64,000 nucleotides of DNA, taken from NCBI RefSeq assembly GCF_016887565.1, contig NZ_CP069396.1, forward strand, positions 7,360,001-7,424,000, in the 5' to 3' direction. Source of the stretch: Archangium violaceum. GTDB lineage: Bacteria > Myxococcota > Myxococcia > Myxococcales > Myxococcaceae. Positions 53,872-57,540 of this stretch are shown piece after piece. Under the pieces are notes generated by a model that saw only the letters and a program-made list of their open reading frames with translations, ran no database searches and had not been told where the DNA came from. Position 1 is the stretch's first letter, and every line of letters starts with the position of its first letter. A program made the translations under genes and the position numbers.

Positions 53872-54816
53872 CTACTTCTTACCGATGGTGAACGCGAGGT
53901 TCACCGTGGCTCGCTCCCCCGGGTAGGGCTTGAAGGGCCACTTCTTCAATTCCCCGAAGAGGCAGTCGAAGAGCGGGCCCTTCTTGAGCTGCGGGTGGTC
54001 CACCCACAGCTGGGCCACGTGGCCGTCGTTGCCGATGGTGAACTCGAGCGGGACCTTGGCGGAGAAGCCCGGACGGCGCTCGGCCTCCTCCTTGAAGCAG
54101 CGGAAGAGCGACGACTGGTACTGCTTCACCACCCGGTTGATGGAGGCCATGTCGTAGTTGACCTCGGTCGACAGCCCGTCCGCGTCCGTGGTGACCTTGC
54201 CCGTCGGGCGTCCCCCCGGCGTGCGGCCCGGCTTCGGCAGCGGCGAGGCCGACGCCACCTTCTCCGGCTTCCCGGGCTTCTCCGTCGGCGTATCGAGCGG
54301 CTTGCTCTCGGGGGGCTTGTTGGCGACCGGCGGCCGCTTCGGCTCGCCGGGGTACTCGAACAGCTCCTCGGGCACGGAGCGCTTCGCCACGGTGATGACA
54401 GGCGGATCCACCTTGATGTCGAGCTCGCGATCGACGCCCGGCAGGTACACGGACGCGTAGCGCGAGATGTGCCACGCCCCCAGGCCCAGTCCACTCAGCA
54501 CCAGCGCCGCCACGCCGCCCACCATGAGCCGCTGGCTCCTGCGCCGGGCGTGCGCGGCCCTCGCCTCCGCCTCCACCTTCAGCTTCACCGCCGCCTTCGA
54601 CACGTGCAGCTGGAAGGCGTCCAGCTCCTCGAGCTTGCGGAAGCCGCTCGGGCCCGAGGCGGAGACCTCCGTTTTCCCCGTCAGCTCCCCCGTGTACAAC
54701 TTCTCCACCACCTGGTGGCCGGACAGGGGGCCAAGGACGAGGTCTCCCTGACGATAGAGCCACTGGGAATCGAGCTGTATCCGCTCGAGGTCATGCAGAT
54801 CTTGTGCGGCCGACAT
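53872..54816 (-). CDS. GYF-domain, single-pass, AgmX/PglI-type C-terminal protein
   Basis: 314 residues from the ATG at 54816. Residues about 15-70 form a GYF_2/DUF4339 domain (WLYRQGDLVLGPLSGHQVVEKL). A basic patch and one transmembrane helix (LMVGGVAALVLSGLGLGAWHI) follow. A Pro/Lys-rich linker spans about 150-215. The C-terminal domain (SINRVVKQYQSSLFRCFKEEA ... FTIGNDGHVAQLWVD ... LFDCLFGELKKWPFKPYPG) is the AgmX/PglI type. It is a TonB-like fold common in myxobacteria and linked to gliding motility in AgmX; the role here is unproven. Divergent from truA. Confidence 0.85.
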   Translation of the reverse strand: MSAAQDLHDLERIQLDSQWLYRQGDLVLGPLSGHQVVEKLYTGELTGKTEVSASGPSGFRKLEELDAFQLHVSKAAVKLKVEAEARAAHARRRSQRLMVGGVAALVLSGLGLGAWHISRYASVYLPGVDRELDIKVDPPVITVAKRSVPEELFEYPGEPKRPPVANKPPESKPLDTPTEKPGKPEKVASASPLPKPGRTPGGRPTGKVTTDADGLSTEVNYDMASINRVVKQYQSSLFRCFKEEAERRPGFSAKVPLEFTIGNDGHVAQLWVDHPQLKKGPLFDCLFGELKKWPFKPYPGERATVNLAFTIGKK

Positions 54817-54881
54817 GGGCCGGGAAGTATCCCAGGCCCCACGGGCCTCCACAACGCCCCTCACACCACACCCTACGCTCC

Positions 54882-55739
54882 GTGAAGAGAACCCCCGCCG
54901 CCCTGTGGATCTGGTACCGAGGTACCCCCTTCATTGGTTTCCAGCGCCAGCCGGACGGCCTCACCGTCCAGGAGGCCCTCGAGGACGCCCTCCGCAAGGC
55001 CGGTGTCCCCTACCCCGTCATGCCCGCCGGCCGCACCGACCGCGGCGTCCACGCTCGCATGCAGGTCGTCAGCGTCCGCCTGCCTCCCTGCTACACCTCG
55101 GAGATGCTCGCCGAGCGGCTCCCGCCTCATGCCCCGCCGGATCTCGGCCTCTGTGTCGCCCGGCGCCCTCCCGACGGCTTCCACGCCCAGTGGAGCGCCG
55201 CCGGCAAGGAGTACCGCTACCGCATCCAGCTCGGGGGGCGTGCGTCGGAGGCCTGGCAGCCCTTCGTCATGGAGCCCTCCGCCGAGCCCCGCTTGGAGGG
55301 GCTGGCCCTCGCTCCCGAGCGCGTGGCGGAGCTGCTCGGCGCCGCGGTGGGCTGCCGCGACTTCTACGCCTTCCACGAGCACTCCAGCCTGCGCAAGCCG
55401 CGCACCCTCACGTCCGCCACCCTGCACGAGCTGGGCAACGGTCTCTTCGAGGCCCGCCTGCGCGGTGATGGCTTCGGCCGCTACCAGGTGCGCTACCTCG
55501 TGGGCTCCGCGATCCTCACCGCCGCGGGCGCCCTCTCCGAGGAGCTCTACCGCTCCGCTCTCGACTCGAGCACCCCCATCCCCGGCCTCAAGGCCCCCGC
55601 CAAGGGGCTCGTCCTCTGGGAGGTGCACTACCCTTCCAAGGTGGATCCCTTCCCCGCCGAGGAGCGGGCCCGCCCCCCGGGTCTCCCCCTGGGGCCTCCC
55701 TTCTCCTTCCCCGCGGAAGCCGGATCCGAGGCCGCCTAG
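54882..55739 (+). CDS. truA: tRNA pseudouridine synthase A
   Basis: 285 residues from the GTG at 54882; earlier in-frame codons overlap the divergent gene's start and lack family homology. TruA motifs are present: WYRGTPFIGFQRQPDGLTVQ, AGRTDRGVHA with catalytic Asp53, and KEYRYRI, DFYAFHE and GFGRYQVRYLVGS blocks. It makes pseudouridine at positions 38-40 of tRNA anticodon arms. A Pro-rich extension closes the C-terminus. Its stop overlaps by a few bases the stop of the convergent ribbon-helix-helix gene. Confidence 0.93.
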   Translation: MKRTPAALWIWYRGTPFIGFQRQPDGLTVQEALEDALRKAGVPYPVMPAGRTDRGVHARMQVVSVRLPPCYTSEMLAERLPPHAPPDLGLCVARRPPDGFHAQWSAAGKEYRYRIQLGGRASEAWQPFVMEPSAEPRLEGLALAPERVAELLGAAVGCRDFYAFHEHSSLRKPRTLTSATLHELGNGLFEARLRGDGFGRYQVRYLVGSAILTAAGALSEELYRSALDSSTPIPGLKAPAKGLVLWEVHYPSKVDPFPAEERARPPGLPLGPPFSFPAEAGSEAA

Positions 55740-55900
55740 TCGACCAGCCGATCCTCGTACTTCGTCAGCAGGTCCGAGATCGCCTCCCGGAGGTACTCGC
55801 TCTGGCGGATCCTCGTCGACCGCGACAGCTCCTTGAGCGCATCGAGCTTCTCGCGGTTGAGACGGAACACCACCGAGGTGAGGCGAGGATTCATGTCCAT
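55736..55900 (-). CDS. Small ribbon-helix-helix (CopG/Arc-type) DNA-binding protein
   Basis: 54 residues, start ATG at 55900 with AGGAG 10 nt upstream; it ends RLVD and TAG at 55736. The sequence has RHH layout: a short beta-strand (TSVVFRLNREKL), helix A (DALKELSRST), a turn and the typical R-x-R-Q-S-E-Y-L-R-E-A-I helix B (RIRQSEYLREAISDLLTKYE). RHH proteins bind as dimers in tandem, each reading a short direct repeat through the paired beta-ribbon, and usually repress their own gene. Immediately upstream is a phased array of GGATCA repeats (55974-56022), an obvious candidate operator. No toxin partner gene is adjacent, so a toxin-antitoxin pair is not supported. Confidence 0.82.
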   Translation of the reverse strand: MDMNPRLTSVVFRLNREKLDALKELSRSTRIRQSEYLREAISDLLTKYEDRLVD

Positions 55901-55973
55901 GTGCGTTGTCTCCTACAGGTGCACACAAGGTCTCACAGACGCATCGGATCGCAAGAAATCCACTCCACCTCTT

Positions 55974-56022
55974 GGATCACCTGGGATCAGGATTGGATCA
56001 CCCGGGGATCGGATCCGGATCA
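55974..56022. promoter_or_regulatory. Iteron cluster A: phased GGATC(A) direct repeats
   Basis: GGATC(A) starts at 55974, 55984, 55995, 56006 and 56017, spaced 10-11 bp, so all face one side of the helix. One extra GGATC lies at 56011 and another at 55946. The cluster is 75-120 bp upstream of the ribbon-helix-helix gene (minus strand). Its last unit contains the TGA stop of the outer-membrane protein gene. Omega-type RHH repressors bind comparable tandem heptads with an ATCAC core. Confidence 0.6.
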
Positions 56023-56490
56023 GAGACTCCAGCGCAGACCGCTCGACACCTCTATGTCGAATCGGAGCCCGGATCCAAATCCCAGCTGCGCTCCCGCTCC
56101 TCCGTAAATGGAGAGGGTCTCGGTCAGCGCTCGCCTCACACCCACGCCTACTCGGGGGCCTATCCAGAAATGGGGCCTCGCGTGCACCATCACTCCGAGA
56201 TCCGTGTAGGTCTGCCACTCCTCCAGCGTGAAGACGCTCCGGAAGCCTCCGTGCGCTCCGAGGCTGAAGCCCGGTGCTCCCGCGCCTGCTCGGGCCAGCA
56301 GGAAGAGCTCGTTGTCCTCGTAGCCCACCGGGAGGCTGCCACCGATCTCCACGTGCCCCGACAGGCCTCGCCTCAGTTGCTCTGAGTCGAAGCCCTCCGT
56401 GTACGTCAGGACGGGGCCGAGGAGGAGCGCTGGATTCCGCGCCTGCGCGGAGAAGGTGGTCAGCAGGAGCAGCAGGGGGAGTTGGTTCAT
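56020..56490 (-). CDS. Small outer-membrane beta-barrel-like protein
   Basis: 156 residues. Signal peptide (QLPLLLLLTTFSAQA), then alternating hydrophobic/polar strands with aromatic residues (LLLGPVLTYTEGF, LSGHVEIGGSLPVGYED, ELFLLARAGAGAPGFSLGAHG, TYTDLGVMVHARPHFWIGPRVG, LSIYGGAGAQLGFGSGLRFDIE), ending SSGLRWSL. This fits an eight-stranded barrel of OmpA/OmpW size, but no family is certain. Two REP copies and GGATCA cluster B lie upstream, between its start and larE; cluster A overlaps its stop codon. Confidence 0.72.
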   Translation of the reverse strand: MNQLPLLLLLTTFSAQARNPALLLGPVLTYTEGFDSEQLRRGLSGHVEIGGSLPVGYEDNELFLLARAGAGAPGFSLGAHGGFRSVFTLEEWQTYTDLGVMVHARPHFWIGPRVGVGVRRALTETLSIYGGAGAQLGFGSGLRFDIEVSSGLRWSL

Positions 56491-56516
56491 GGGAACCCGG
56501 TGAGGTGGGACGGATG

Positions 56517-56550
56517 ACCCTCACCCCAGCCCTCTCCCAGAGGGAGAGGG
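56517..56550 (+). repeat. REP-like palindrome copy 8
   Basis: ACCCTCACCCC head and CCCTCTCCC-AGA-GGGAGAGGG (56530-56550), upstream of the outer-membrane protein gene. Direct tandem with copy 9, 32 nt apart. Confidence 0.92.
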
Positions 56551-56582
56551 GGCTTACACAGGAGGAACCCGGGGGCCGAGAT

Positions 56583-56616
56583 ACCCTCACCCCGACCCTC
56601 TCCCGAAGGGAGAGGG
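56583..56616 (+). repeat. REP-like palindrome copy 9
   Basis: ACCCTCACCCC head and CCCTCTCCC-GAA-GGGAGAGGG (56596-56616), GAA-loop subtype like copy 5. It directly abuts iteron cluster B and lies about 40 nt after the larE stop. Confidence 0.92.
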
Positions 56617-56617
56617 A

Positions 56618-56658
56618 GGATCATTCCAGGATCAGCCTGGAGGATCAGGTTTGGATCA
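56618..56658. promoter_or_regulatory. Iteron cluster B: four GGATCA direct repeats
   Basis: GGATCA starts at 56618, 56629, 56642 and 56653 (spacing 11, 13, 11). The last contains the larE stop codon. GGATCAGGTTTGGATCA here differs by one base from GGATCAGGATTGGATCA in cluster A. It is 128-168 bp upstream of the outer-membrane protein start. Confidence 0.6.
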
Positions 56659-57540
56659 GCTGACCACCGGTAATGGGTGCGTGTCCGCCCCAGGTCGCTG
56701 GATCCCCGCCGCCTCGTTCATCCGCCCCGAACGGAAGGGTTCCAGATCCAACGCCACGAACTTGAACCCCAGCGCCTTCAGCGCCCCGTCCACCTCCCGC
56801 CTCACCTCCGCCGATAGGAAGCGCTCGTACTCCTCCGCCGAGAGCTCGATTCGCGCGATCTCCTGGTGGTATCGCACCCGGAACTGCCTGAATCCCCTCT
56901 TGCGCAGCTCCGACTCCGCCCCGGCGATCTGGAAGAGGCGCTCCCTCGTCACAGACGTCCCGTACGGGATTCGCGACGCCAGGCACGCCATCTGCGGCTT
57001 GTCCCACGTCGGCAGCCCCAACACCTGGCTCCACGCCCGGATCTCCTCCTTCGTCAGCCCCGCCAACGCCAGCGGCGAGCGCACCTCGTGCTCCTTCGCC
57101 GCCTTGTGCCCCGGCCGGTGATCCTTGAAGTCGTCCGCGTTGAAGCCGTCCACCACCACCGCCAGCCCCAGCTCCTTCCTCTTCACCTCGCAGAGGTCGT
57201 ACAGCTCCGTCTTGCAGAAGTAGCAGCGGTTCGTCGGGTTGGCCGCGTACTGCGGGTTGGACAGCTCGTCGCTCGACACCACCACGTGCCGCGCTCCCAT
57301 CTTCGCCGCCAGCTCCCTCGCCTCCCGCTCCTCCTCGGGCGCCACCGACGCCGACAGCGCCGTCAGCGCCAGCGCCTTCTCTCCCAGCTCCTCCACCGCG
57401 ATCTTCAGGACGAACGTCGAGTCCACCCCTCCCGAGAACGCCACCAGCGCCGAACCGTGCGCGCGCAACGCCGCACGCATCGCGTCCAACTTGGGACGGG
57501 AGGAGTCACACAGGGCCTGGATCCGCTCGGGGGTCAGCAT
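56656..57540 (-). CDS. larE: LarE-type ATP-dependent sacrificial sulfur transferase
   Basis: 294 residues. PP-loop (ALVAFSGGVDSTFVLKIA), then NRCYFCKTELYD and KPQMACLASRIPYG. Cys186 in the last block corresponds to the cysteine that LarE of Lactobacillus sacrifices as sulfur donor to the pyridinium ring of the nickel-pincer nucleotide cofactor. LarB and LarC, the other cofactor-synthesis proteins, are not in the window, so the substrate here may differ. The GGATCA repeats overlap the stop codon. Upstream is a CysC-like gene ending in a clear terminator, so larE is probably transcribed on its own. Confidence 0.9.
   Translation of the reverse strand: MLTPERIQALCDSSRPKLDAMRAALRAHGSALVAFSGGVDSTFVLKIAVEELGEKALALTALSASVAPEEEREARELAAKMGARHVVVSSDELSNPQYAANPTNRCYFCKTELYDLCEVKRKELGLAVVVDGFNADDFKDHRPGHKAAKEHEVRSPLALAGLTKEEIRAWSQVLGLPTWDKPQMACLASRIPYGTSVTRERLFQIAGAESELRKRGFRQFRVRYHQEIARIELSAEEYERFLSAEVRREVDGALKALGFKFVALDLEPFRSGRMNEAAGIQRPGADTHPLPVVS

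What the first reader, a model, noticed from the sequence alone, without database searches (positions are those of the whole stretch)
55946..56658. Two clusters of GGATCA direct repeats, one helically phased, beside a ribbon-helix-helix gene
Cluster A has GGATC(A) at 55974, 55984, 55995, 56006 and 56017 (10-11 bp steps, same helix face). Cluster B has four at 56618, 56629, 56642 and 56653. A shared 17-bp core differs at one position. A lies upstream of a 54-residue RHH gene (55736-55900), B upstream of a small outer-membrane protein gene, and the last unit of each contains a gene's stop codon. RHH repressors such as plasmid omega bind tandem ATCAC-type heptads, so an RHH regulon of its own gene and the outer-membrane gene is a reasonable model.
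Basis: partly seen in the sequence, partly recalled or inferred. Interest (0 to 1): 0.72.

Follow-up and report, generated by a model that had tools for sequence, protein, structure and literature searches.

The report
Phased TGATCC operator-like arrays in Archangium
In the soil bacterium genus Archangium, one spot in the genome carries two rows of a six-letter DNA word repeated about once per helix turn, which looks like a docking strip for a regulatory protein; the neighbouring small DNA-binding protein is a candidate but is not shown to be the one that docks there.

Summary
Read on the coding (minus) strand, both clusters are rows of TGATCC every 10-13 bp. Each row starts at the stop codon of the upstream gene (larE for B, an 8-stranded outer-membrane barrel for A). 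They are far beyond chance: triplets occur nowhere else in the 13.2-Mb genome, and 4 of 5 genome-wide pairs lie here. All six held genomes of the genus have such arrays; unit number varies from 1 to 7. Spacers are no more alike than random letters, while the hexamers are nearly perfect. That points to selected, phased protein-binding sites rather than fresh tandem duplication. The RHH-regulon reading is only a candidate. The RHH gene is in 96 of 96 family genomes with conserved predicted base-contact residues, yet rows of three or more units next to it are found only in Archangium. A TGTGnGA-N3-TGTGnGCA element in the RHH promoter, kept across the genera, is a better guess for the RHH operator. 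Hyalangium/Stigmatella-type genomes carry a similar array at an unrelated promoter. Best reading: a genus-specific operator array of a sequence-specific regulator, probably grown from a single site upstream of the RHH promoter. The binder is unknown.

The parts
55974..56022 (-). Array A: five units T/CGATCC at 11, 11, 11, 10 bp steps; first unit contains the stop codon of the barrel gene; upstream of the RHH promoter
56618..56658 (-). Array B: four TGATCC units at 11, 13, 11 bp steps; first unit contains the stop codon of larE; upstream of the barrel gene
55736..55900 (-). 54-aa ribbon-helix-helix protein gene (PF12651 RHH_3), present in 96/96 family genomes
55901..55957 (-). RHH promoter and leader: TTTCTTGCGATCC ... 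TGTGAGACCTTGTGTGCACCTGTAGGAG, with family-wide conserved TGTGnGA-N3-TGTGnGCA direct repeats; alternative RHH operator candidate
56020..56490 (-). Small outer-membrane protein, signal-peptide-like N terminus plus predicted 8-stranded beta barrel (best PDB match NspA 1p4t); decayed to a remnant or deleted in some Archangium and Cystobacter-type genomes
56517..56616 (.). Two REP-like elements (CCTCACCCNNNCCCTCTCCC..GGGAGAGGG; about 600 copies genome-wide) between array B and the barrel start
56656..57540 (-). larE, ATP-dependent sacrificial sulfur transferase (TIGR00268), upstream gene of array B
54804..55739 (+). truA-type tRNA pseudouridine synthase gene, convergent with and overlapping the RHH gene end by 4 bp; conserved neighbour

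Best explanation
The arrays are cis-regulatory operator arrays. Each TGATCC unit is a site for one protomer or dimer of a sequence-specific DNA-binding protein, and neighbouring proteins sit on nearly the same face of the helix (10-13 bp steps, mean 11.2), so binding is probably cooperative. Array A lies directly upstream of the RHH promoter; array B lies between larE and the barrel gene, in the region from which the barrel would be transcribed. The arrangement is specific to Archangium. It appears to have grown from a single TGATCC kept 14-15 bp upstream of the TTTCTTGC promoter element of the RHH gene (still single in Cystobacter-type genomes and in MAG SZUA-606). The likely role is to tune transcription of the RHH gene and, where present, the barrel gene. 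The local RHH protein is the nearest candidate binder (about 0.3-0.35); another, unlinked regulator is at least as likely. Shown here: the arrays, their locus specificity, recurrence in the genus, core-versus-spacer difference, and copy-number change. Inferred: protein binding, cooperativity, regulatory role, identity of the binder, direction of evolution.
For: Triple arrays in 6/6 genus genomes with 0 reversed-control hits, placed at the larE/RHH locus. Pairs with N4-6 spacers are almost confined to the locus (G000: 4 of 5 hits). No degenerate triple arrays above chance elsewhere in G000. Spacers within an array are no more alike than shuffled letters (mean identity 0.00-0.47 against 0.22-0.40), while substitutions between species fall in spacers (11/112) rather than hexamers (2/144), Fisher P=0.003. 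Steps are 21x11, 5x12, 2x13, 2x10. The proximal unit keeps its distance to the promoter element in Cystobacter-type genomes, including a duplicated RHH promoter in G034 (TGATCT). A row of three TGATC(C/G) units at about 11-bp steps sits in an unrelated intergenic promoter region in Hyalangium/Stigmatella-type genomes, not after a stop codon. No Rfam match or unusual RNA fold; no Dam-type methylase.
Against: No binding or expression data. No recognisable sigma-70 promoter in the region. The core/spacer test is biased because units are defined by the hexamer, and its comparisons are not all independent. Both arrays start exactly at stop codons and on the transcribed strand, which an RNA-level element would also predict. 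Array B persists after the barrel gene decayed (G001, G002), so its target is not simply the barrel.
Confidence: 0.55

Rival explanations
1. One reading: the 54-aa RHH protein itself binds the TGATCC arrays and autoregulates its own gene plus the barrel gene.
For: It is the only DNA-binding protein encoded beside the arrays, and arrays are confined to this locus, as expected for a dedicated local regulator. RHH dimers of RelB bind 6-bp repeats on one face of the helix, in 12-bp half-sites (PMC2812701).
Against: The RHH is in 96/96 family genomes with conserved predicted contact residues S9/V11/R13, but arrays of 3 or more are absent from its upstream region in every non-Archangium locus examined. 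A family-wide TGTGnGA-N3-TGTGnGCA repeat in its promoter fits an ancestral RHH operator better.
Confidence: 0.3
2. RNA-level element: after the stop codons the transcript carries UC/CC dinucleotides every about 11 nt, a near-ideal Rho loading (rut) site that ends larE and barrel transcripts.
For: Both arrays start at a stop codon and lie on the transcribed strand; YC spacing of about 11-13 nt and a 70-80 nt span (G002, G004 arrays) match textbook rut geometry (own knowledge); no intrinsic terminator found.
Against: A generic terminator design should recur genome-wide but is found only here. The invariant GA in the core is not needed for Rho. The Hyalangium-type array is in a divergent promoter region, not after a stop codon.
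Confidence: 0.12
3. Neutral tandem-repeat growth by slippage or recombination, without function.
For: Unit number differs between relatives (G001 4 against G004 7 in array B), so units are gained or lost.
Against: Spacers are unrelated within an array while hexamers stay intact; arrays recur in all six genus genomes and in two places of one locus.
Confidence: 0.12
4. GATC methylation switch, or pairing of UGAUCC with the 16S rRNA 3' tail (GGAUCACCUCC).
For: Each unit contains GATC; TGATCC is the exact complement of GGATCA in the 16S tail (own knowledge).
Against: No MethyltransfD12 (Dam-type) family member in G000. Complementarity to the 16S tail does not extend beyond the hexamer in most units.
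Confidence: 0.04

Closest known systems
RelB/relO operator of E. coli (RHH antitoxin)
   Same: 6-bp repeats read by RHH dimers on one face of DNA (PMC2812701); small RHH gene beside its operator
   Different: relO is four [A/T]TGT[A/C]A hexads in two palindromic 12-bp half-sites; here 3-7 same-direction TGATCC units; no toxin gene seen; no binding shown; NCBIfam RelB-like score 19.8 is far below its cut-off of 50
Omega (RHH) operators of plasmid pSM19035
   Same: row of short repeats upstream of genes regulated by an RHH protein (own knowledge; the heptad-repeat paper is cited in PMC5016525)
   Different: omega heptads are contiguous (7 bp) and occur in both orientations (own knowledge); here 10-13 bp steps, one orientation, chromosomal, single locus, no partition genes beside it
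CdbA/CdbB of Myxococcus xanthus (RHH, c-di-GMP-binding nucleoid proteins)
   Same: small RHH protein conserved across myxobacteria (PMC7156744)
   Different: phmmer of this RHH against PDB chains up to E=1 returned no CdbA and no RHH protein; different gene neighbourhood (larE-barrel-RHH-truA)

Membership tests
Ribbon-helix-helix protein (PF12651 RHH_3) | profile match over the gathering score | tested here: met
   61.3 bits against cut-off 21.6, residues 8-49
Ribbon-helix-helix protein (PF12651 RHH_3) | beta strand plus two helices forming a dimer | tested here: inconclusive
   AlphaFold monomer pLDDT 67, two helices, strand not formed; a monomer prediction is unsuited to an intertwined dimer
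RHH-bound operator array (omega/RelB kind) | phased direct repeats near the RHH gene promoter | tested here: met
RHH-bound operator array (omega/RelB kind) | array conserved with the RHH gene | tested here: not met
   3 or more units only in Archangium among 78 distinct upstream regions; RHH in 96/96 genomes
RHH-bound operator array (omega/RelB kind) | RHH protein binds the repeats | not testable with these tools
   needs gel shift or footprint
RelB antitoxin | RelB-type profile over cut-off and adjacent toxin gene | tested here: not met
   19.8 bits against cut-off 50; neighbours are the barrel gene and truA
8-stranded outer-membrane barrel (OmpA/OmpX/NspA-like fold) | eight beta strands closing a barrel | tested here: met
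   eight strands, pLDDT 91; Foldseek best hit NspA 1p4t, E=2.3e-5, TM 0.62
GATC (Dam) methylation switch | a GATC methylase in the genome | tested here: not met
   no PF02086 match in G000; other methylase families not tested

The most novel reading that the evidence does not exclude
An ancient, family-wide RHH repressor, or an unidentified regulator, acquired in one genus a copy-number-variable rheostat: identical hexamers added or lost one helix turn at a time at a single locus, so that the number of bound proteins, and thus expression, differs between species. This would be a natural series for studying how operator arrays grow.
Probability: 0.25. Interest if true: 0.5.

Novelty: new variant of a known kind. 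Interest (0 to 1): 0.36.

Why it matters
If confirmed, it is a clean natural case of an operator array growing by whole helical turns at one locus: a single site in related lineages, 3-7 in Archangium, with spacers free to drift and hexamers held. It would also give a first handle on a small RHH protein that every genome of the family keeps. It does not open a new class of system.

Tried and rejected
CdbA/CdbB identity of the RHH: not among PDB matches up to E=1. Genome-wide regulon of the hexamer: none found. Known RNA family or stable RNA fold: none; array B gives a weak hairpin (z -1.7), but the G003 substitutions disrupt it. 16S anti-Shine-Dalgarno pairing: complementarity rarely extends past 6 nt. 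Dam methylation: no Dam-type gene. TGATCAGC units after the barrel stop in basal relatives (L032, L038, L041, L053): at most two phased units; looks like a separate stop-codon-linked palindrome. RHH regulon by the TGTG element: one other perfect site in G000, at the start of another ORF with the same leaderless-promoter look, so it may be a promoter motif rather than an operator. Papers on a GGATCA/TGATCC bacterial repeat: none relevant. Strand polarity of the REP repeat along the chromosome, suspected and noted in the notebook: an artefact of list order, not real.

Full report
OBSERVATION. The window lies in a 13.2-Mb Archangium-type genome (G000:C1:7360001-7424000). Genes at the locus run on the minus strand: larE (56656-57540), array B, barrel gene (56020-56490), array A, RHH gene (55736-55900), then convergent truA on the plus strand. 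On the minus strand the unit is TGATCC. The first unit of B contains the larE stop codon and the first unit of A the barrel stop codon. Array A has five units at 11, 11, 11, 10 bp if the CGATCC at its second position is counted; B has four at 11, 13, 11.

CHANCE. In the window, TGATCC-N5-TGATCC with up to one mismatch is found 5 times against 0.25 expected; no shuffle of 100 reached 5. Genome-wide, triplets are found only here, 4 of 5 pairs are here, and relaxed triplets (up to 3 mismatches) give two hits at this locus plus three scattered weak ones.

RELATIVES. Five other genomes of the genus all carry triplets, with none for the reversed pattern. Array B has 7 units in G002 and G004, 4 in G001, G003 and the window, and 1 degenerate unit in G005 (TGATCA). 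Array A has 3-5 units. In G001 and G002 the barrel gene is a remnant, yet both arrays persist. In Cystobacter-type genomes (G031-G034) the barrel is gone and a single TGATCC/T remains 14-15 bp upstream of the conserved TTTCTTGC element, also in the second copy of a duplicated RHH gene in G034. Myxococcus, Corallococcus, Hyalangium and Stigmatella types have no array at this locus. Of 78 distinct upstream regions of the RHH gene, three or more phased TGATC[C/A] units occur only in Archangium, while the RHH gene is in 96 of 96 family genomes. G036 and G038-G042 carry a different array of three TGATC(C/G) units in the intergenic region between a hydrolase-like gene and a divergent gene, next to a LexA-like palindrome; G035 and G037 have fewer phased units there, and Archangium has none. 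So the motif can be used at a promoter with neither a stop codon nor the RHH gene beside it.

SELECTION. Within an array, spacers are no more similar than shuffled letters, while hexamers are nearly all perfect. Between species 11 of 112 spacer positions and 2 of 144 hexamer positions differ (P=0.003). The caveat is that units are defined by the hexamer and the comparisons share sequences. Recent tandem duplication would make spacers alike; selected phased sites would not.

MECHANISM. The most likely mechanism is a row of protein-binding sites, one per helix turn, upstream of the RHH promoter (A) and of the barrel gene (B). The RHH is the nearest candidate binder. Its predicted base-contact positions (S9, V11, R13, by alignment to CopG from own knowledge) are kept across the family, so its preferred DNA should be old. 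The one old DNA feature found beside it is the TGTGnGA-N3-TGTGnGCA repeat in its own promoter/leader (43 sequences), similar in style to RelB's TGT hexads (PMC2812701). That weakens, without excluding, the idea that it reads the arrays. The same element occurs at a second site with a leaderless look, so it may instead be part of the core promoter.

ALTERNATIVES. Rho loading fits the position after stop codons but not the uniqueness. Methylation lacks a Dam-type enzyme. 16S pairing is limited to the hexamer in most units. RNA folding and Rfam give nothing. No consensus promoter or terminator is recognisable in the region.

PROTEINS. The barrel model has an N-terminal helix and eight strands, pLDDT 91, closest in PDB to NspA. 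The RHH matches PF12651; its monomer model is poor.

VERDICT. The feature is real, locus- and genus-specific, and probably functional. The regulator is not identified, and the RHH-regulon claim is a candidate only. It is a new variant of a known kind (operator arrays).

Noticed in passing
window 55901-55957; L005-L056 upstream of the RHH gene: The RHH promoter/leader is kept across the whole family: TTG(AC/CG), then TGTGnGA-N3-TGTGnGCA; in basal relatives (L046-L049, L051, L053) the start codon follows directly, suggesting leaderless mRNA.
   Followed up: partly
L113-L118 (G036, G038-G042), around 2400-2600: An array of three TGATC(C/G) units at about 11-bp steps sits in the intergenic region between a hydrolase-like gene and a divergent gene, next to a LexA-like palindrome (CTGAACATCGGTTCAG), in Hyalangium/Stigmatella-type genomes.
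   Followed up: partly
window 56517-56616; genome-wide: REP-like element CCTCACCCNNNCCCTCTCCC..GGGAGAGGG, about 600 copies in the genome on both strands; two copies separate array B from the barrel gene.
   Followed up: partly
L193 (G034:C1:6585800-6588900): The RHH gene is duplicated in tandem, each copy with its own conserved promoter; no barrel gene was detected there.
   Followed up: no
L032, L035, L038, L040, L041, L050, L053, L054 after the barrel stop codon; L035, L038, L050 at the RHH stop codon: TGATCAGC-type palindromes follow the stop codons in basal relatives, up to two phased copies; possibly a separate stop-codon-linked element.
   Followed up: partly
G001, G002 between larE and RHH (L108, L006): The barrel gene has decayed to a remnant (GGATTTGGATCC..) with a REP-like element upstream of it, while both arrays remain.
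   Followed up: partly
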